A stretch of 64,000 nucleotides of DNA from Archangium lansingense (GTDB taxonomy: Bacteria > Myxococcota > Myxococcia > Myxococcales > Myxococcaceae), in assembly GCF_026626635.1 (NCBI RefSeq), contig NZ_JAPNKA010000001.1, positions 1,364,001-1,428,000 on the forward strand, written 5' to 3'. Every line of letters starts with the position of its first letter. The first letter of the stretch is position 1. The notes under the pieces were generated by a model, which had not been told where the DNA came from, did not search any database, and saw only the letters and a list, made by a program, of their open reading frames with translations. Shown in pieces: positions 46,065 through 55,204 of this stretch. Made by a program: the position numbers and the translations under genes.

Positions 46065-47561
46065 ATGAGGCAGACAGTTTTCGTGGAGAAGTCCGTCGGC
46101 AAGACTGTGCTCGTGGGCACGTTTTCGGCGGCCGAAGTGGTGTCGATGCTGCTGAGCGGCCACCTGGGAGTCAACCCTGAGGCACAGCGCTCGTTGTCCA
46201 AGGGCGCCTCCAAGGAGACCACCAAGGAACTCCTCCAGGACGAGCGCGTCCACCGTACGCCGCGGATGGAACGGTTCGTGGACTTCCTCAGGACGGTGAT
46301 CCGCTACCTGGATCAGGGGTACTCCTCCCACGGGTTCCTGGGCGCCATCCAGTTGGTGATTCCCGAGGAGTTCCAGGGGGCCCAGGTGCGCTTCATCGAG
46401 GCGGACACGGGAAACCTACCCGGAGGCCTCTCGATTGCCCTGGCTTCCTTGGGCAAGCACACCCGGATCGCTACCCTGGAGATGAACCCTAGCCTTGATG
46501 AGATTGCCATGGCCGTGGGTGATGGTCAGGGCCGGTGCTTCGGCTTGTACTCGCTGCGCAAGACCGCCCAAGACATGCTGACCAAGGCCCGCCGCGAGCA
46601 GAAGAAGATCTCGCCCGGAAGTCCCGAAGCGGAAACCCTTCGAGTGAAGATCGAGGAGTGCGAGGGCTACCTCAACAAGGTGAGCGAGTTCCTCTCGAAT
46701 ACCGCCATCCCGTTCGTCATCTATGCCAAGGAGATCAAAGCGAACGGTTCGATCGTCGGACTCGACCTCACGGCCCAGAAGCGACTCTACATCGAGGGCA
46801 ACGCCCTGAACTCGCAGGCGTCCAAGGAGGAGCAGGTCAAGTTCGAGTCGTTCTCGCCGGTCACCCTGTCTCTCCAAGAAGACCGCATTGAGGACGAGAA
46901 TCGCTGGATGAGTTCCGATTTCATCGAGGAGGACTCGAAGTCGGTGTCGAAGAGCAGCATCAAGCTGTTCACGCTCTCCGCACTCGTCCAGGCCTACAGC
47001 CTCTCCATGCTCGGCCGGAACGATGGGATCAAGGATATCAGCGAGGAGGCTTTCCAGGATGTCTCGTACCAGAAGGAATTCGTGAAGGCGTTCTGGAAGC
47101 GGGTCTCGAACGTCTTGAATGACCTGTGGATCCCCGAAGTCAAATCGTCCGGAGACCGCCTGAAGTACCTCAACGAGCGCAGGGAAGAGCAGAACGTGGC
47201 GTTCCAGGCTGTTTTCCTCCAGGCGCTTGGCAAAGTGGGCTACACCCTTGGGGAGAAGGCGCTCTGGGCGCCAGAGTCTCCCCTGCTGAGCGTCGTGGAT
47301 CAGCTCAAGAACATTGAGTTGCGCGCGAAGGTGGGCGATCCCTCCACCTGCTCCAATCCGAACGGACAGGTCAACAAGCACGAGGGGTGCTGCTACACCG
47401 CCGGATGGGTCCAGAGCATGATGGTCGCCAAGCATGACGGAGGGGAGTTCGCGGGCTACACCTTCAACAACACCCGTGACACCATCGAGCGGACCTACCA
47501 GCACCTGCTCACTCTTTTCGGGCTCTCCGGCGCTCCTTCCAAGGACTCTGCGGCGGCCTAG
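46065..47561 (+). CDS. DndB-like DGQHR-domain protein
   Basis: 498 residues; GAGGT 6 nt before ATG. N-terminal NPEAQR (37-42) and the motif VGDGQGR (DGQGR 153-157) belong to the DndB/DGQHR family; the usual third-position His is Gly here. DndB controls phosphorothioate DNA modification, and the related DpdB assists preQ0 insertion into DNA. A middle helical part ([21 protein letters not shown]) and the C terminus with [20 protein letters not shown], possibly metal binding, complete it. It sits between the mini-protein and queC, so a role in deazaguanine DNA modification is inferred. It is not close to the two DpdB-like proteins at 49839 and 52318 in sequence. Confidence 0.75.
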
Positions 47562-47567
47562 ACGCCT

Positions 47568-47600
47568 GGGGGGAGTCCGGCACTGACGCGACTCTCCCCC
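47568..47600 (+). other. Stem-loop between the DndB-like gene and queC
   Basis: GGGGGGAGTC and GACTCTCCCCC form a GC-rich stem with one bulge and a 12-nt loop. No T-run, so possibly an attenuator or processing site. Confidence 0.45.
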
Positions 47601-47653
47601 GGAGCCTGGCCCTGCATTCCACAGCACTTTCGACGGCTCTCCAGCGTGCCGAT

Positions 47654-48388
47654 ATGACACTCCCACTTCCGACGAACACCCCCGCCTCTTCGTCCGCCCT
47701 GGTCCTCTTCTCCGGTGGACAGGACTCCACGACCTGCCTTGCCTGGGCCCTCGAGCATTTCGACCGGGTCGAGACGATCAGCTTCGACTATGGCCAGCGT
47801 CACGTGGTCGAGCTCGAATGCCGCACCCGTGTCGTGGCGGCGCTTCGGGCCCAATTTCCCAAGTGGGCGGCGAAGCTGGGCAACGATCACATGATCGACC
47901 TGAAGGTGCTCGGGCAGATCAGTGACACGGCCCTGACGCAGGCGAAGACGATTCAACTGAACAAGGACAAGCTGCCCAACACCTTCGTGCCCGGGCGGAA
48001 CCTGATGTTCCTCACCTTCGCCGCCGCCGTGGCCTACCGGCGTGACCTCAAGGTGCTCGTCGGCGGGATGTGTGAGACGGACTACTCCGGCTACCCGGAC
48101 TGCCGGGATGACACCCTCAAGGCCTTGCAGGTGGCGCTCAATCTCGGGATGGACCAGCGCTTCGTCATCGAGACACCGCTCATGTGGATCGACAAGGCCA
48201 GGACGTGGAAGCTCGCCGAGTCCCTCGGTGAGCAGCGACTGGTGGAATTGATCCGAACGGAGACCCACACCTGCTACCTGGGGGCGCGTGACGTGCTCCA
48301 CGACTGGGGCTACGGGTGCGGCAAGTGCCCTGCGTGCGAACTCCGCGCCCGGGGATGGGCTGCCTACCGCTCCGCACGGAAGGACTGA
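47654..48388 (+). CDS. queC: 7-cyano-7-deazaguanine (preQ0) synthase QueC
   Basis: 244 residues. ATP pyrophosphatase loop [13 protein letters not shown] (PP-loop SGGxDS at 20-25), [25 protein letters not shown], and a C-terminal zinc site made of HTCYLG, then [15 protein letters not shown]. QueC turns CDG plus ammonia and ATP into preQ0, precursor for queuosine in tRNA and for 7-deazaguanine in DNA. The other precursor genes (folE, queD, queE) are not in the window. The location in this operon points to a dedicated preQ0 supply for DNA modification, but it may also serve tRNA. No clear ribosome site. Confidence 0.94.
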
Positions 48389-49626: not shown

Positions 49627-49699
49627 GCCCAGGTAGCTCAGTTGGTAGAGCAGGGGACTGAAAATCCCCGTGTCGGTGGTTCGATTCCGCCCCTGGGCA
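49627..49699 (+). tRNA. tRNA-Phe (GAA)
   Basis: 73 nt including discriminator A. Acceptor GCCCAGG/CCTGGGC, D arm GCTC...GAGC, anticodon stem GGGGA with loop CTGAAAA giving anticodon GAA, T arm GGTGG/TTCGATTC. No encoded CCA. A terminator follows at 49727. Not split or duplicated, so no attachment-site scar is visible. Confidence 0.97.
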
Positions 49700-49726
49700 C
49701 TTCCTACAGAATTCCGCAGTACACCG

Positions 49727-49838: not shown

Positions 49839-50996
49839 TCAGCGTCGTGCGGCGCGCCCGGTCTTCTCGGACTTGGGAGGCACCCGGTTCCACACCAGGT
49901 TCTTGTATTGAGCGATGAGGTGGTTGGCGAGCAGCTCGATGTCCTTGGACGTGTTCTGCAGCTCGTTCCACTTGCGCTGCTGCCCGCCCCCGAAGTCCCA
50001 GTGACCGGCGGTCCACCGGCAGAGCTCCTTGAGCGGCTGGAGATCGGCCTCGTAGTGCATGACGGTGGGGATATGCGTGTCATGTAGCCGATCGCTGATG
50101 GTGTCCATGATGAAGCCCATGCTGACGATGCCCGCGCCGTGCATGAGCCGCGACTTCCTGGGCGCCAGTCCCCAGGCTGCCTTGAAGACCCGGGCGACCG
50201 CCATCCAGTAGTTGCGCAGCAGTTCCAGCATGGGCTCGACATCGCCCTCCAGGGTTCCCGGCTGCCTGAACTTATAGAGCGCGCCATCGCTCAAGCTGTT
50301 CTCAAGCATCTTGAGGATGGAGTTGTCCTTGATGACCCCCGTCGGATTGGTCGCGGTCTGGATCATCCCTCGCAGAGGCGAGCTGAGGTCCAGGTTGAGC
50401 CGCTCTAGGATCTGGGCCGGGAGCCGGCGCCGGTTGAGGAGTGACGGTAGCTGGGCGGTCGTCTTGGGGAGCAGTTCGTAGATGAGCCCCTTGGGCAGGG
50501 GCTTGGTCGAGTTGACGAGGATGAACTGCTCCGTCTGCTGGCTGACGTCGTTGGTGATGAACGCCGTCACGCAGATGGGGAAGCTCTCGATGGAGGCCTC
50601 GCGGATGGCTGCCAGGCGCTGTTGGCCGTCCACGATGAAGCCTGGCTTGCGCTCGTCGGCGAGGTTCTCCTCCATGGGGATGGTGATGAAGCCCGGACGC
50701 GCATAGTCCGTGGTCAAGGTGCCCTTGGCCGCCTCGAAGCGTACGCGCGAATCGAAGGCCAGGACGATGGCGTTGGGCACCATCGGCGAGGGGCTCTCGA
50801 GGTAGTTGCGGATCTCATCGATGTGCGAGAGCACCTCGGGCCGCTGATAGCCATGCAGGCCACCATCCTCATGACGGTTCACGCGCGAGATGGTGGCGAA
50901 GCGATGGACCAGCTTTCCATCCACCGCGAAGGAGTACAGCTTCCGTCCGGGGGACTGGTGCACTTCCACGGCGGGAAGCTTCAGTTCTTTCGACAT
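49839..50996 (-). CDS. dpdB: DpdB-like DGQHR-domain protein 2
   Basis: 385 residues from ATG 50996 (AAGGGAAG upstream); an ATG at 51014 touching the DpdA stop (TGATG) is a possible alternative start. Conserved blocks: GYQRPEVLSHIDEIRNYL, PNAIVLAFD, the motif IVDGQQRLAAI (DGQQR 123-127), FILVNSTKPLPKGLIYELLP and SRLMHGAGIVSMG. This is the DGQHR family containing DpdB, which in Salmonella works with DpdA to put preQ0 into DNA. It is a clear paralogue of the protein at 52318-53460, and the two flank dpdA. The distinct role of each copy is unknown. Confidence 0.88.
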   Translation of the reverse strand: MSKELKLPAVEVHQSPGRKLYSFAVDGKLVHRFATISRVNRHEDGGLHGYQRPEVLSHIDEIRNYLESPSPMVPNAIVLAFDSRVRFEAAKGTLTTDYARPGFITIPMEENLADERKPGFIVDGQQRLAAIREASIESFPICVTAFITNDVSQQTEQFILVNSTKPLPKGLIYELLPKTTAQLPSLLNRRRLPAQILERLNLDLSSPLRGMIQTATNPTGVIKDNSILKMLENSLSDGALYKFRQPGTLEGDVEPMLELLRNYWMAVARVFKAAWGLAPRKSRLMHGAGIVSMGFIMDTISDRLHDTHIPTVMHYEADLQPLKELCRWTAGHWDFGGGQQRKWNELQNTSKDIELLANHLIAQYKNLVWNRVPPKSEKTGRAARR

Positions 50997-51013
50997 GTTT
51001 CTTCCCTTGCTCA

Positions 51014-52321
51014 TCAGCCGCGGGCCTGTGCTTTCAACCGGTGCGAGGGCTGCCGGGACTCCGTGAAGGGCTCCTGGGGCGTGTCCAGCCCGAGCCGTTG
51101 CAGTTGCCGATAGAGAGTCCAGATGTTGTGGAAGCCCCGCCTCCGGTTGCGCTCGGCACCCCGGAAGAGGATGACGTGGTATTTCAGGCTCTGGCACACC
51201 TCGCAAGGGCAACGGCGCCAGGGAGCCTCGCGCAGCGTCTTCTCGTAGGCGGGGGCGTGGTTCTTCTTCGTGTCGGGATCGTAGAACCGCTCGTACTCCA
51301 TGAGCACCTCCACGACCTGGGTGACCGTGCGCCGGCCTTCCTCGAAGAGCTTCATGGCTTCCAGGCAGGCCCGCTCCAACCGGCGCGCCTGCTCCTGGGA
51401 GACCTGCCCGGAGGAGATCTTCCGCTGCAGACCGGGGTTCCCCTCGACCTGCGGGATGCGGATCGCCGTGTACTTGAAATCGTCCGAGTAATAGTTGTCG
51501 CGGTCGTCCTTGAAAGCCTGCCGCAGCGGGGACGTGCTGTCGAATGAAGCGACGCCCAGGCGGGAGAACTCCGCGAGGTGCTCGGTGCGCGTCACGCCCA
51601 GCAGGTGCAGGCGTGTGCCTGGCTTGCGCACCGTCTGGATCTCCTCCAGGCACATGTGGAGCTCGGGAGTCTTGAGGGGGACCATGCCGCCGAGCGCGAT
51701 GTAGTCGTAGCCCATCTTCTGCAGCGCCTTCACCGCCGCGGCGTAGGACTTCGGGCTCCAGCCCTGGGCCACTCCGAGCGGCTCGAAGGAATAGCGCCCC
51801 ACCTTGTGCTTGTGGAGGAACTCCTGGGCCAGCTCCAGCGTGAGCTTCTGCCTGTCCCGGACGGGCTCGGCGATCTCCACCCCGGAACCCGGCGTGTCCG
51901 CCGCTGGCTTGAACTCGAGGATGACGTGGTCGAGTGACACGCCCATATCGAAGCGGCAGTTACCGTAGAACTCGAGCACCTCGTCGACTGAATACGGTGG
52001 GACCTCCTCGGCCACGTACGTGAAGGCACCACAGTCGCCCATGATCTTGAGCGGGTGAGGAGCCCGCTCCAGGCGGAAGAACTCGGGTGCGCCGCGTCGC
52101 AGCAGCCGGTGGCGCTGGGCCGCTGTGTAGCGGCTGCCCAGCGCGCCGAAACCATCGACGATGCCCTTGGAGACCAGCAGCCCGTCGAAAGCGGGCATGG
52201 AGAAGATCTCGTGAGCGTAGAGGTCGTCGGTCTGGCGCTGACGGGCCACCGAGCGGCGCTCGCGCTCGAAATCGAAGGTGGGATCGACGAGATCCTGGCT
52301 GTCTGGCAGGAAGAACTTCAA
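51014..52321 (-). CDS. dpdA: DpdA, TGT-like DNA 7-deazaguanine transglycosylase
   Basis: 435 residues from TTG 52321, which overlaps the preceding stop by 4 nt (TTGA) and gives the typical start MKFFLPDSQDLVDPTFDF. Fold and motifs are those of tRNA-guanine transglycosylase, diverged: GDCGAFTY with Asp96 (base recognition region), SLDH Asp131, IALGGMVPL, the probable nucleophile Asp261 in SFDSTSPLRQAF, and a zinc site CPCEVC (371, 373, 376) with His398. DpdA swaps guanine in DNA for preQ0, and the base is then processed. The neighbours and queC support DNA, not tRNA, as substrate. Ribosome site absent; coupled translation is expected. Confidence 0.92.
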   Translation of the reverse strand: MKFFLPDSQDLVDPTFDFERERRSVARQRQTDDLYAHEIFSMPAFDGLLVSKGIVDGFGALGSRYTAAQRHRLLRRGAPEFFRLERAPHPLKIMGDCGAFTYVAEEVPPYSVDEVLEFYGNCRFDMGVSLDHVILEFKPAADTPGSGVEIAEPVRDRQKLTLELAQEFLHKHKVGRYSFEPLGVAQGWSPKSYAAAVKALQKMGYDYIALGGMVPLKTPELHMCLEEIQTVRKPGTRLHLLGVTRTEHLAEFSRLGVASFDSTSPLRQAFKDDRDNYYSDDFKYTAIRIPQVEGNPGLQRKISSGQVSQEQARRLERACLEAMKLFEEGRRTVTQVVEVLMEYERFYDPDTKKNHAPAYEKTLREAPWRRCPCEVCQSLKYHVILFRGAERNRRRGFHNIWTLYRQLQRLGLDTPQEPFTESRQPSHRLKAQARG

Positions 52322-53460
52322 GCGGATGTCCGTCGGTTGTTCAGGTAGGCGCGAATCAGCGCGCTGGAGAGCAGGCGGATGTGCTGCGGCGTGTTCTGGA
52401 CCTCGTTCCACGCCAGCCCGCCGAGCTCCTCCCAGTTCCCATCCGTCCAGCGGCAGATGGGTCGGATGCGAGCCAGCTCGGTGCGCACCACCTGGGGGGC
52501 CCGGGCACCGTGCAGGTCGATGCTGCCCATGACCTTGTCCATGAGCCGCCCCATGGCGCAGAGGCCCGCGCCATGCATCAGCCTGCTGCGGGTAGGAGGG
52601 CGGCCCCAGGCCTCGGGGAAGATGTCGCGGACCGCCTTCCAGTACATGAGGAGCAGCTTGCGCACGGACTCGAAGTCCGTCTCTCCACTGGCGATGTTGC
52701 GGTAGGGGAAGAGGGCTCCGTTGGGGGAGGAGAGACTCTCCTGGAGCATCTTCACTATGGCGGTGTCGGTCACCACGGCGGAGTGGCGGGAGTCGGCGTC
52801 TAGCGAGGCGCGCCGGATGAGACCCCGGAAGGGCGAGTCGGGGTCCCGGTTGAGCAGGTCGCACAGGGCTGCAGGCGCGCGGCGGGCCGCGAGGTTGCTG
52901 GGCAGCAGCGAGGACACCTCGGGGAGCAGCTCGGTGATGAGTCCACGCGGCAGGGGCTTGGTGTTGTTGACGCGGAGGAACTGGTCGCGTTGCAGGTCCA
53001 CCTCATCCGCCACGAAGGCGTTGACGGGCACGGGGAAGTCCTGCCGCCTGCACTGTGAGAGTGCCAGGGCTCGCTGCTGGCCATCCACGATCCACGCGGG
53101 CTTGCTCTGGCCCGGCCTGGGCAGGGGGATGCGCAACGTGCCGGCCTCGCCGATGCCGGAGTCCACCTTGGGCCCTCGGACCTGCTTGAAGAGGGTGCTC
53201 GAGGACAAGGCGAGGATGATGGAGTTGGGGAAGAGGACCTGCGGACCGTCGAGGTACTCGGTGATGCTGCGCACGTGCCGCTTCACCTCGGGGCGCTGGT
53301 AGCCGAGCAGGGCCCCGCCCTGGTCCCGCGACACGCGGGAGACGTCGGCCACCCGGAGCAGCTCGGAGGCCGTGAGGGTGAAGAGGTAGAGCGGATGCCG
53401 GGGGTGCTGCGCGATGCGGATGGCACGGCGCAGCAGCGCATCGGGTTCGCGGCGGCTCAT
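52318..53460 (-). CDS. dpdB: DpdB-like DGQHR-domain protein 1
   Basis: 380 residues; ATG overlaps the preceding DUF6884 stop by 4 nt (ATGA) and its own stop overlaps the dpdA start. Motif WIVDGQQR at 123-130, plus GYQRPEVKRHVRSITEYL, PNSIILALS, FLRVNNTKPLPRGLITELLP and SRLMHGAGLCAMGRLMDKV. Paralogue of the 49839 protein, with common blocks but different N terminus (MSRREPDALLRRAIRIAQHP). Being coupled directly to dpdA, it is the more likely functional DpdB. Biochemical role (ATPase, loading or regulation) is unknown. Confidence 0.88.
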   Translation of the reverse strand: MSRREPDALLRRAIRIAQHPRHPLYLFTLTASELLRVADVSRVSRDQGGALLGYQRPEVKRHVRSITEYLDGPQVLFPNSIILALSSSTLFKQVRGPKVDSGIGEAGTLRIPLPRPGQSKPAWIVDGQQRALALSQCRRQDFPVPVNAFVADEVDLQRDQFLRVNNTKPLPRGLITELLPEVSSLLPSNLAARRAPAALCDLLNRDPDSPFRGLIRRASLDADSRHSAVVTDTAIVKMLQESLSSPNGALFPYRNIASGETDFESVRKLLLMYWKAVRDIFPEAWGRPPTRSRLMHGAGLCAMGRLMDKVMGSIDLHGARAPQVVRTELARIRPICRWTDGNWEELGGLAWNEVQNTPQHIRLLSSALIRAYLNNRRTSA

Positions 53461-54419
53461 GGGCGCTCCTGGAGCTCGTGGAAGAGCCGGCCGAAGCGCT
53501 TCTGCTCACAGGCGAGGCCGCTGTCTCGCAGCTGCCTCAAGGTGGCGCTACAGGAACGTTTCTGCGTGCGCAGCGCCTGCACGATGAACTGGCGTACCTC
53601 GTCGTCCGTCATGGGCGTCCGCTCATAGCGCACGGGGGGAGCGCTGCGGTGGATAAGACGCTCGTAGTACTCCCGAGCGTGGGTTGCGTCCACTTCGCTC
53701 CCCGTATCGCGAGCGCGCTGGAGGATGTCCCGGGCGACACGGGCGTGGAGCGACTGGCGTGCGCCTCCCAGGCGATTCTGGAGGTGGGCGTTGGAGGGAA
53801 CCTGGTGGGGTGCCAGGACACCCTTGAAGAGGGGCGCAGGCGTCGAGACGATGAGGAGATGCTCGGGCTTGTTCAGGGCCTGGGCAGCGCGTGCCAGGTC
53901 ATCCGCGAACGCGGCGACATAGGCCGGTGAGGCCACGACCAGGATTCGGGCGCGCGGTGAGGACTCCACAAGCTGGTGGATGTGGCGGGGCGTTCCCGGG
54001 GCGGGGCCGGATTCCCGGGCGAGTGCCTTCCACCAGAGCTGGAGCAACTCAGCCGTGGGGCGGGATTCTCCCTTGGGGATGACGGAGTCCGCGTGGCCTC
54101 GGGAGAAGGTGGCCGAGTACGGGCGGATGGGAGCGTTCGCGGGGATGAGCCCGTATCCCGCCGAAGCCACCCAGAGGTGGGAGCGCAGCCCGGCCTCGGT
54201 GGCCAGCGGAGGCAACTCCTGGACGACACTCCAGTGATCACCCGCGTACAAGTCCTGTGCGGAGCGCTTGGGATGAGGGTGGTCGCGGAGGCAGTTCCAC
54301 CAGAGTTTGGCGCGGGATTCGGGTGGCGCCGCCTGGACGGTTCGCAGGTGAAGCCCTGGAGGAATGGGGACACGCTTCCGGTCGCTGCAGCTGGCGATGA
54401 TGTGGAGATCGGTCGACAT
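53457..54419 (-). CDS. DUF6884/YaaA-like protein of the dpd operon
   Basis: 320 residues from ATG 54419 (GGGAG close upstream). Starts MSTDLHIIASCSDRKR, the Cys-Ser signature of the DUF6884/YaaA-like group, with SAQDLYAGDHWSVV and LWVASAGYGLIPANAPI as further family blocks. A C-terminal helical winged region (about 240-320: DDEVRQFIVQALRTQKRSC, ATLRQLRDSGLACEQKRFGRLF) looks DNA-binding. First gene of the operon with DpdB1, DpdA and DpdB2 and coupled to DpdB1. By position it is a candidate for the step after preQ0 insertion (DpdC-like) or for base recognition; neither is shown. Confidence 0.75.
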   Translation of the reverse strand: MSTDLHIIASCSDRKRVPIPPGLHLRTVQAAPPESRAKLWWNCLRDHPHPKRSAQDLYAGDHWSVVQELPPLATEAGLRSHLWVASAGYGLIPANAPIRPYSATFSRGHADSVIPKGESRPTAELLQLWWKALARESGPAPGTPRHIHQLVESSPRARILVVASPAYVAAFADDLARAAQALNKPEHLLIVSTPAPLFKGVLAPHQVPSNAHLQNRLGGARQSLHARVARDILQRARDTGSEVDATHAREYYERLIHRSAPPVRYERTPMTDDEVRQFIVQALRTQKRSCSATLRQLRDSGLACEQKRFGRLFHELQERP

Positions 54420-54718: not shown

Positions 54719-55204
54719 TCAGTCGATGCTCAAACCAGCCTGCTGGAGCAGGGCTTCATGATGCTCGCTTGGGAAGTGGTCATTCATCAACGTGCGAGCA
54801 ATACGTCGAACGAGCTCCGGCCGTGCGCGGAGTAGCTGGTCGTATTCTTCGATGAAGCCGCCCCGGGCATTCGATTCGCGCAGAGACGTCAGGGTCGGAT
54901 CGGTGTTGCTCTTGCGCTGAACCAGTTCCGCCTTGTTGCGGACCTCGACTTCCCAAAGTCCATCGTGCTGTAGGCGCCAGAACGGGTAGCCCGCATGAGG
55001 AGTGTTTCGTGCCTGGCCGTGGCTCTTCAGGAGTGACACGAGCTTGGGCTCGATCTCCACGAAGGAGACGAGCCTCGGTTCGTCGCGTTGAATACGTCCC
55101 AATGCGAGGAGGAGAAGCAGGGGTTTGTGTGCTGCCGTCTGCCCCTGGCGCCTCCAGGTCTGGAGGTTCTGGATGGCACTCAGGAGCCTCTGTTCTTCAT
55201 TCAT
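54719..55204 (-). CDS. Stand-alone sulfur-binding (SBD)-like domain, no nuclease domain
   Basis: 161 residues. It follows the N-terminal domain of ScoMcrA-type restriction enzymes closely: LLSAIQNLQTWRRQGQTAAH, KPLLLLLALGRIQRDEPRL, YPFWRLQHDGLWEV, GGFIEEYDQLLRARPELVRR, and FPSEHHEALLQQAGL. In full-size enzymes this domain binds phosphorothioate DNA and an HNH nuclease follows; here a stop (TGA-type end after LSID) closes the frame at the domain border and the 131 bp downstream contain no HNH. It is 299 bp upstream of the dpd-like operon on the same strand. It could be a reader of modified DNA or a truncated relic. Confidence 0.75.
   Translation of the reverse strand: MNEEQRLLSAIQNLQTWRRQGQTAAHKPLLLLLALGRIQRDEPRLVSFVEIEPKLVSLLKSHGQARNTPHAGYPFWRLQHDGLWEVEVRNKAELVQRKSNTDPTLTSLRESNARGGFIEEYDQLLRARPELVRRIARTLMNDHFPSEHHEALLQQAGLSID

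What the first reader, a model, noticed from the sequence alone, without database searches (positions are those of the whole stretch)
49839..54419. Compact dpd-like operon for 7-deazaguanine DNA modification with two DpdB-like copies
Four minus-strand genes in close coupling: a DUF6884/YaaA-like protein, DpdB1, DpdA and DpdB2. The DpdA motifs (GDCGAFTY, FDSTSPLRQAF, CPCEVC zinc site) fit the TGT-like enzyme that inserts preQ0 into DNA. Known dpd clusters (Salmonella Montevideo dpdA-K) need DpdA plus DpdB for preQ0 and DpdC for ADG, followed by restriction genes. Here DpdB is doubled and flanks DpdA, and no helicase or PLD restriction gene is seen. It is therefore either a minimal modification-only system or one whose restriction part differs.
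Basis: partly seen in the sequence, partly recalled or inferred. Interest (0 to 1): 0.9.

Follow-up and report, generated by a model that had tools for sequence, protein, structure and literature searches.

The report
Dpd DNA-marking operon, distant restriction half
This myxobacterial chromosome carries a four-gene operon predicted to write a modified guanine into its own DNA, and a nearly complete set of Dpd restriction genes 6.6 million bases away, so a known phage-defence system has likely come apart into two halves that would work together at a distance.

Summary
In detail: four overlapping minus-strand genes, 49839-54419. DpdA and both DpdBs pass NCBI's curated cut-offs, and the family profile matches a solved DNA-guanine transglycosylase end to end. 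Two points change. First, the 'DUF6884/YaaA-like' gene is DpdC (PADLOC 290 bits): the order is dpdC-dpdB1-dpdA-dpdB2 and the predicted product is dADG. The doubled DpdB is common: 49 of 80 DpdA loci from several phyla, B1 a 100/100 clade. Second, no DpdD/E/F/H/J/K-like frame is in the window, but the same 13.76-Mb contig carries dpdE-F-G-H-(I)-J-K-D 6.64 Mb away, with no dpdA, B or C within the 40 kb fetched there. Its DpdJ is closest, among the dpd loci compared, to one 1.1-8.5 kb from a C-B1-A-B2 operon in a gammaproteobacterial MAG. In a sister species restriction-like genes sit in a tRNA-Phe-bounded insertion exactly between tRNA-Phe and dpdB2; in the window that site is empty. Best reading: a Dpd system split into a stable marking half and a mobile restriction half acting in trans. 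Gene evidence is strong; chemistry and coupling are untested.

The parts
53457..54419 (-). dpdC (DUF6884): predicted to hydrolyse dPreQ0 to dADG
   Evidence: PADLOC DpdC 290.4 bits, E 3.9e-87, residues 4-318; Pfam DUF6884 26 bits, below cut-off 30; no PDB sequence match
52318..53460 (-). dpdB1: DGQHR/ParB-like predicted ATPase, B1 clade
   Evidence: NF041060 427.5 bits, cut-off 300; PADLOC DpdB 474 bits; keeps DGQQR and GYQRP; B1 clade 100/100
51014..52321 (-). dpdA: DNA-guanine transglycosylase, TTG start overlapping the dpdB1 stop
   Evidence: NF041059 574.6 bits, cut-off 200; PDB 7ui4 E 4.4e-161 with the family profile; only DpdA match in the genome
49839..51014 (-). dpdB2: DGQHR/ParB-like predicted ATPase, downstream copy
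   Evidence: NF041060 504.7 bits; PADLOC DpdB 507.7 bits; tree
54719..55204 (-). Stand-alone sulfur-binding-domain (SBD) protein, 161 aa, no HNH nuclease; membership of the system not shown
   Evidence: NF045808 profile positions 3-154 of 284 only, 151 bits under cut-off 180; PDB 5zmo ScoMcrA SBD E 1.4e-13; no HNH remnant; dN/dS 0.19 vs the sister species
49627..49700 (+). tRNA-Phe(GAA): intact, unoccupied insertion site next to dpdB2
   Evidence: ARAGORN; the 3' part is duplicated around a 32-kb insertion in the sister genome G063
47654..48388 (+). Second QueC (preQ0 synthase), related to QueC of alphaproteobacterial dpd islands
   Evidence: TIGR00364 208.4 bits, cut-off 150.3; 66-69% identical to QueC in dpd islands L155-L159; another over-cut-off QueC at C1:11538282
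46065..47561 (+). Third DGQHR/DndB-like protein, 498 aa, role unknown; membership of the system not shown
   Evidence: Pfam DndB 47.9 bits, cut-off 29.1; no relative in the other 194 Myxococcota genomes, though 76 relatives in the protein database

Best explanation
The window holds the four synthesis genes of a Dpd DNA-modification system (dpdC-dpdB1-dpdA-dpdB2), the same chromosome carries Dpd restriction genes (dpdE-F-G-H-I-J-K-D) 6.64 Mb away, and the two sets likely act together in trans. Shown: the gene identities and order, that the genome's only DpdA match and both its DpdB matches are in the window, and that the distant operon has no synthesis gene in the 40 kb around it. Inferred from characterised Dpd systems: DpdA, helped by the DpdB ATPases, swaps guanine for preQ0 in host DNA, DpdC turns dPreQ0 into dADG, and the DpdE-J helicases/ATPases with the PLD nuclease DpdK and DpdD destroy DNA without the mark. 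Further inferred: the marking half stays by tRNA-Phe and is inherited vertically, while restriction halves come and go separately, in the sister species by insertion at that tRNA-Phe. Least certain: that the distant operon reads this mark, and what B1 adds to B2 (perhaps a heteromeric ATPase partner).
For: Identities. Distant operon: DpdJ 1147 bits (cut-off 800) and DpdF 571 (cut-off 550) over cut-off; PADLOC DpdE 719, DpdF 470, DpdH 648, DpdJ 1223, DpdK 188, DpdD 320 bits. One contig, 6,637,759 bp apart. One DpdA, two DpdBs in the genome; no DpdA/B/C match better than E 0.28 near the distant operon. Co-occurrence: the 5 of 195 genomes with DpdH at E <= 1e-10 and the 5 of 195 with DpdJ at E <= 1e-60 all have DpdA or, in G171, a DpdB at a contig edge. 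Among the loci compared, DpdJ and DpdD are closest to L087 (52% over 1533 aa, 1519 bits; 41%) and DpdK about equally to L087 and L114 (51, 52%); in L087 they lie convergent, 1.1 kb past a C-B1-A-B2 operon whose DpdA is 62% like the window's, the closest outside Myxococcota. The sister genome G063 has restriction-like genes inserted between tRNA-Phe and dpdB2, bounded by a 45-bp tRNA repeat with one mismatch. Operon dS against G063 (0.17-0.32) is like that of two flanking core genes (0.26, 0.30), dN/dS 0.11-0.23.
Against: No chemistry or phage test exists. DpdH, DpdE, DpdD, DpdK and DpdG of the distant operon score below NCBI's cut-offs (293/450, 420/500, 195/300, 88/100, 52/80), DpdG is weak in PADLOC (17 bits), and the gene at the DpdI position matches no family. 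DpdE/F/H show no special kinship to any operon. The set compared was stretches around DpdA plus a few restriction stretches, so that the nearest relatives lie beside dpd operons is partly built in; and the DpdJ of L114 is cut by the end of its locus (43% over 659 aa). Unlinked pairs are few: G000, G096 (DpdD/J/K only) and G098 (draft, different contigs, and it has a second restriction set beside its dpdA). The chance of 3 of 3 falling in DpdA genomes of the family is 0.0025, of 2 of 2 0.02, and near relatives are not independent. Searches scored only the best 2-3 candidates per genome and had strict thresholds. Ten of the 16 DpdA genomes have neither DpdJ at E <= 1e-30 nor DpdH, so marking without this restriction set is viable.
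Confidence: 0.63

Rival explanations
1. Modification only: the window operon writes dADG for a purpose other than guarding against its own restriction genes (protection against incoming Dpd restriction modules, or gene regulation), and the distant operon is decayed, silent or uncoupled.
For: Ten of 16 DpdA genomes (G046, G061, G062, G065, G094, G101, G120, G126, G136, G139) have no DpdJ at E <= 1e-30 and no DpdH; three of these have an HNH nuclease pair instead. In G062 against G065 the operon still evolves under purifying selection, dN/dS 0.08-0.19. A published survey reports Archangium islands with dpdC and without the restriction operon (PMC11888242, passages).
Against: The eight distant genes are open frames in one direction, and where a model exists it is covered nearly end to end in PADLOC for D, E, H, J and K; an intact restriction operon without a mark would be expected to harm the cell.
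Confidence: 0.22
2. A different local effector: the stand-alone SBD protein, or the third DGQHR protein beside QueC, reads the 7-deazaguanine mark and replaces the canonical restriction part.
For: The SBD gene is kept beside dpdC in two species, 81% identical, dN/dS 0.19, without HNH. In three relatives a DGQHR-like protein with an HNH nuclease adjoins dpdB2 (L030, L031, L038).
Against: No nuclease domain was found in either window protein; the SBD gene occurs beside dpd in only 2 of 16 myxobacterial loci, its dS (0.54) is above that of the operon, and the third DGQHR protein is in 1 of 195 genomes.
Confidence: 0.07
3. The distant dpdD-K operon is an orphan guarded by some unrelated mark, and its presence in this genome is coincidence.
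For: It has no synthesis gene nearby; Dpd-like restriction genes are known in hybrids with other systems (PMC12458937, passages).
Against: None of the 195 genomes has DpdJ (E <= 1e-60) or DpdH (E <= 1e-10) without a dpd synthesis gene (G171 by DpdB only); DpdJ/K/D relatives in L087 and L114 lie near dpd synthesis genes, though the set compared was mostly such loci.
Confidence: 0.06
4. The DpdA-like protein is a tRNA transglycosylase and the operon acts on tRNA.
For: Weak Pfam TGT match, 29.7 bits.
Against: DpdA equivalog 574.6 bits against 25.3 for general TGT; solved DNA-guanine transglycosylase E 4.4e-161, the only PDB match at E <= 0.001; DpdB and DpdC partners.
Confidence: 0.01

Closest known systems
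Dpd (7-deazapurine in DNA) islands, dpdA-K, as in Salmonella Montevideo and Kineococcus radiotolerans
   Same: DpdA, DpdB and DpdC in one operon; the same genome has DpdD-K
   Different: Synthesis and restriction halves lie 6.64 Mb apart; DpdB is present as two paralogues, while the enterobacterial loci sampled here have only the downstream one (Salmonella itself was not examined)
Restriction-less dpd islands reported for Myxococcota/Archangium (GATOR-GC survey, PMC11888242, passages read)
   Same: dpdC present, restriction operon absent next to dpdAB
   Different: The passages read describe windows around dpdAB; here restriction genes are elsewhere in the genome
C-B1-A-B2 dpd operons of Actinomycetota, Planctomycetota and Alphaproteobacteria
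   Same: Same gene order and B1/B2 orthologues
   Different: 39 of those 49 loci have restriction genes (over 100 bits in HMMs made here) within the DNA held, mostly 10 kb each side
ScoMcrA / SBD-HNH phosphorothioate-dependent endonucleases
   Same: Sulfur-binding domain homologous to the 161-aa protein
   Different: No HNH nuclease; sits beside a dpd operon

Membership tests
Dpd system (synthesis part) | DpdA, DNA-guanine transglycosylase | tested here: met
   NF041059 574.6 bits, cut-off 200; PDB 7ui4 E 4.4e-161
Dpd system (synthesis part) | DpdB, DGQHR/ParB-like protein | tested here: met
   Two copies, 427.5 and 504.7 bits, cut-off 300
Dpd system (synthesis part) | DpdC | tested here: met
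   PADLOC DpdC 290.4 bits, E 3.9e-87; Pfam DUF6884 below cut-off
Dpd system (restriction part) | dpdD-K in the same island | tested here: not met
   No DpdD/E/F/H/J/K-like frame in the window; G and I not tried
Dpd system (restriction part) | dpdD-K in the same genome | tested here: met
   Seven of eight genes of C1:8056178-8073698 have Dpd family matches; DpdJ and DpdF pass NCBI cut-offs, the other five matched genes do not; the DpdI-position gene has no match
Dpd system | dPreQ0 or dADG in DNA | not testable with these tools
   Needs LC-MS/MS
tRNA-guanine transglycosylase (Tgt) | Passes the Tgt family cut-offs | tested here: not met
   TIGR00449 25.3 vs 47.6; TIGR00430 16.9 vs 306.75; TIGR00432 17.3 vs 350; the general Pfam TGT domain does pass, 29.7 vs 26.3
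SBD-HNH PT-dependent endonuclease (gene 54719-55204) | SBD domain | tested here: met
   PDB 5zmo E 1.4e-13
SBD-HNH PT-dependent endonuclease (gene 54719-55204) | HNH nuclease domain | tested here: not met
   Aligns to the N-terminal half only, below cut-off; no remnant downstream

The most novel reading that the evidence does not exclude
Dpd is a modular, trans-acting restriction-modification system: the marking operon is a stable, vertically inherited chromosomal gene set by tRNA-Phe, kept under selection even alone as a standing antidote against Dpd restriction cassettes, while interchangeable restriction halves are gained separately and can sit anywhere in the genome.
Probability: 0.4. Interest if true: 0.68.

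Novelty: new variant of a known kind. Interest (0 to 1): 0.52.

Why it matters
Dpd systems are usually called from neighbouring genes. If the halves can be megabases apart, some 'restriction-less' dpd islands may be misread, and solitary dpd synthesis operons become a natural case of an antidote without its poison. It gives a clean test: delete dpdA at one locus and ask whether the distant operon turns on the cell. It also raises a specific question, what the conserved second DpdB (B1) does, because the enterobacterial loci sampled here lack it.

Tried and rejected
Three main Dpd papers (PMC10164549, PMC6207457, PMC10966956) are not held, so what they say is recalled or taken from passages of other papers. 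Passages of PMC13329287 on QueC were seen and not used. Rejected: tRNA-TGT identity; the idea that doubled DpdB is unusual; the idea that the third DGQHR protein (46065-47561) belongs with the DGQHR+HNH pairs of relatives (no significant similarity). P0005 against plasmids and phages gave no match. DpdJ was sought in 13 further genomes with no or only fragmentary restriction hits near dpdA and found over cut-off in 6, on other contigs than DpdA; these are drafts and several DpdA contigs end nearby, so I do not count them as split systems. In Myxococcota 8 of 9 loci with DpdB1 go with DpdD-K-like genes or an HNH pair, against 1 of 6 loci without B1, but enterobacteria have restriction genes without B1, so I make no claim. 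The HMMs were seeded with genes from L162-L170, so their hits there are true by construction. In the DpdB tree the gammaproteobacterial DpdBs, labelled B2 by best match, fall next to the B1 clade with weak support (90/87), so their side is not settled.
Full report
THE OBSERVATION. The four minus-strand genes exist at the coordinates given, with overlapping ends: dpdC 54419-53457 and dpdB1 53460-52318 share ATGA, dpdB1 and dpdA share TTGA (dpdA starts with TTG at 52321), and dpdA and dpdB2 share one base at 51014. NCBIfam calls DpdA (574.6 bits, cut-off 200) and two DpdBs (427.5 and 504.7 bits, cut-off 300). An alignment of 10 myxobacterial DpdAs keeps GDCGAFTY, the Asp of FDSTSPLRQAF and the CxCxxC...H residues (which residues are catalytic is recalled from TGT knowledge). 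The only solved structure matching the family profile at E <= 0.001 is 7ui4, 'DNA-guanine transglycosylase', end to end at E 4.4e-161. A published survey also lists DUF6884 as the domain of dpdC (PMC11888242, passages). So the locus is dpdC-dpdB1-dpdA-dpdB2, the synthesis set expected to end in dADG.

TWO DpdBs ARE COMMON. In Myxococcota, 16 of 195 genomes have DpdA over cut-off. Of these 16 loci, 9 (window included) are C-B1-A-B2, 6 are C-A-B2 (one cut by a contig end) and 1 is divergent. Among 80 DpdA loci from genome contigs (some are the same myxobacteria; the tool kept the best 80 of 99), 49 are C-B1-A-B2, 25 C-A-B2 and 6 other. In a tree of 70 rows (DpdBs of 36 of the 80 loci, the window, four more myxobacterial B2s, four orphan DpdBs and two outgroup proteins), the labels given by best match fall out as one side of a branch each, B1 (23 rows) and B2 (41 rows), with 100/100 support; the gammaproteobacterial B2s lie next to the B1 clade with weak support (90/87), so where they belong is open. 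Both paralogues keep DGQQR and other shared motifs. The survey above counts 801 additional dpdB copies. So the doubled DpdB is an old paralogue pair, not a feature of this strain.

THE RESTRICTION HALF IS ELSEWHERE IN THE GENOME. HMMs built here for DpdD, E, F, H, J and K find nothing in the 64-kb window. But the window's genome has a DpdJ at C1:8058875-8063377 (1147 bits, cut-off 800) and a DpdH-like match at C1:8064444-8067140 (293 bits, cut-off 450). The stretch C1:8056178-8073698 is one minus-strand run of eight genes, 1092, 801, 286, 1024, 226, 1516, 178 and 720 aa. PADLOC calls them DpdE 719, DpdF 470, DpdG 17 (weak), DpdH 648, none, DpdJ 1223, DpdK 188 and DpdD 320 bits. NCBIfam agrees, with DpdF (571) and DpdJ over cut-off and E, G, H, K and D under it. 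The genome's one DpdA match and its two DpdB matches are in the window. In the 40 kb fetched around the distant operon the window's DpdA, B and C find nothing better than E 0.28. Both loci lie on the same 13.76-Mb contig, 6,637,759 bp apart one way and 7,098,333 the other.

ARE THE TWO HALVES A PAIR? Three lines of evidence say so. First, co-occurrence: in 195 Myxococcota genomes DpdJ at E <= 1e-60 occurs in 5 (G000, G063, G096, G098, G171) and DpdH at E <= 1e-10 in 5 (G000, G042, G063, G098, G171). All six genomes have DpdA, or in G171 a DpdB at a contig edge. Those searches scored only the best 2-3 candidates per genome. For the unlinked cases alone (G000, G096, and G098 by contig) the chance of 3 of 3 falling in the 14 DpdA genomes of the 96 of the family is 0.0025, and of 2 of 2 it is 0.02; relatedness makes these too optimistic. 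G096 has D, J and K but no E, F or H in the stretch fetched and no DpdH in the genome; G098 also has a second restriction set beside its dpdA. Second, matching relatives: the distant DpdJ and DpdD are closest to L087, a gammaproteobacterial MAG (52% over 1533 aa, 1519 bits against 656 for the next full-length one; 41%), and DpdK is about equally close to L087 and L114 (51, 52%). In L087 these three lie convergent, 1.1 kb past a C-B1-A-B2 operon whose DpdA is 62% like the window's, the closest outside Myxococcota. Limits: the set compared was mostly stretches around DpdA, the DpdJ of L114 is cut by its locus end (43% over 659 aa), and DpdE, F and H show no such kinship. Third, a restriction operon with no mark would be expected to attack its own DNA (general knowledge), and the window holds the only DpdA match in the genome.

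A MOBILE RESTRICTION HALF AT tRNA-Phe. dpdB2 ends 138 bp from an intact tRNA-Phe gene. That stretch carries IS-like remnants by eye, EAD1/TIR/trypsin-type genes and a dpdE-F-G-H-J-like cluster (the HMM seeds include genes of that cluster, and the NCBI scores for J and H are below cut-off, 277 and 311 bits). So in G063 restriction-like genes appear to have been inserted at tRNA-Phe next to a pre-existing marking operon; in the window that site is empty. No integrase was identified. Synonymous divergence of the operon between the two species (0.17-0.32) matches two flanking core genes (0.26, 0.30), and dN/dS is 0.11-0.23, which fits vertical inheritance under selection. In G062 against G065, where no DpdJ (best E above 1e-6) or DpdH was found, dN/dS is still 0.08-0.19: the marking operon is kept without this restriction half.

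NEIGHBOURS. The QueC at 47654-48388 is a second preQ0 synthase, 66-69% identical to QueC of alphaproteobacterial dpd islands, against 28-45% for QueC in the other dpd loci sampled; another over-cut-off QueC lies at C1:11538282. It may raise preQ0 supply; QueD, QueE and FolE were not searched in this genome. The 161-aa gene at 54719-55204 is the sulfur-binding domain of PT-dependent endonucleases without the HNH domain; it is kept in G063 (81% identical, dN/dS 0.19, dS 0.54) and no HNH remnant follows. It may be a stand-alone reader; its ligand is unknown. The DGQHR protein at 46065-47561 has no relative in the other 194 genomes but 76 in the protein database.

MECHANISM, SHOWN AND INFERRED. 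Shown: gene identities, order, genome positions, co-occurrence, tRNA-Phe insertion pattern. Inferred from characterised systems (summarised in PMC12839542, passages): DpdA with DpdB ATPase puts preQ0 in DNA and DpdC makes dADG; that DpdD-K restrict unmarked DNA is from PMC11888242 (passages) and general knowledge. Inferred here: that the distant DpdD-K reads this mark.

NOVELTY. Dpd itself, DUF6884 = DpdC, extra DpdBs and restriction-less myxobacterial islands are in print. A Dpd system split across a chromosome was not seen in the library searches (listings, plus passages of four papers), and that library lacks the three primary papers tried, so the claim is only that I did not find it.

Noticed in passing
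L070 8565-10172, L071 9483-11102, L072 9105-10697, L073 9419-11035 (genomes G087, G134, G076, G088): Prophage-like loci encode ~535-aa proteins, 63-94% identical to each other; the one scanned (L070) is a natural fusion of DUF6884 (DpdC-like, 131 bits) with a DpdB/DndB domain. Those genomes have no DpdA match, and PHROG methylase and helicase genes lie near. It suggests that DpdC and DpdB work as a unit, and that phages may borrow a host mark.
   Followed up: partly
L030 11841-14145, L031 5237-7495, L038 11947-14189; also L109, L146, L158: A further DGQHR/DpdB-like protein (below family cut-offs) paired with an HNH nuclease sits beside dpdB2, convergent with the operon, in three myxobacterial genomes without DpdH or DpdJ at E <= 1e-30; similar pairs lie near dpd loci in other phyla (clear in L146, weak in L109 and L158). 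Candidate compact restriction module, like GmrSD or SspE (comparison recalled).
   Followed up: partly
window 46065-48388: A 498-aa DGQHR/DndB-like gene and a dpd-lineage QueC lie together between two core genes that adjoin each other in L027, L029, L031 and L036: a separate insertion close to the dpd operon.
   Followed up: partly
window 54719-55204: HNH-less sulfur-binding-domain gene kept beside dpdC in two species; five of the six other relatives aligned carry an HNH-like C-terminal part, the sixth is cut by a contig end.
   Followed up: partly
L032, L034, L039, L155-L159: dpd islands carrying preQ0 genes (queE, queD, queC, folE2) beside the synthesis operon (some names are by eye from the sequence).
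   Followed up: no
G096 C1:3316380-3323901 (L173): DpdD, J and K, far from dpdA (C1:8415658), with no DpdE, F or H in the 20 kb fetched: a possible partial restriction half in trans.
   Followed up: partly
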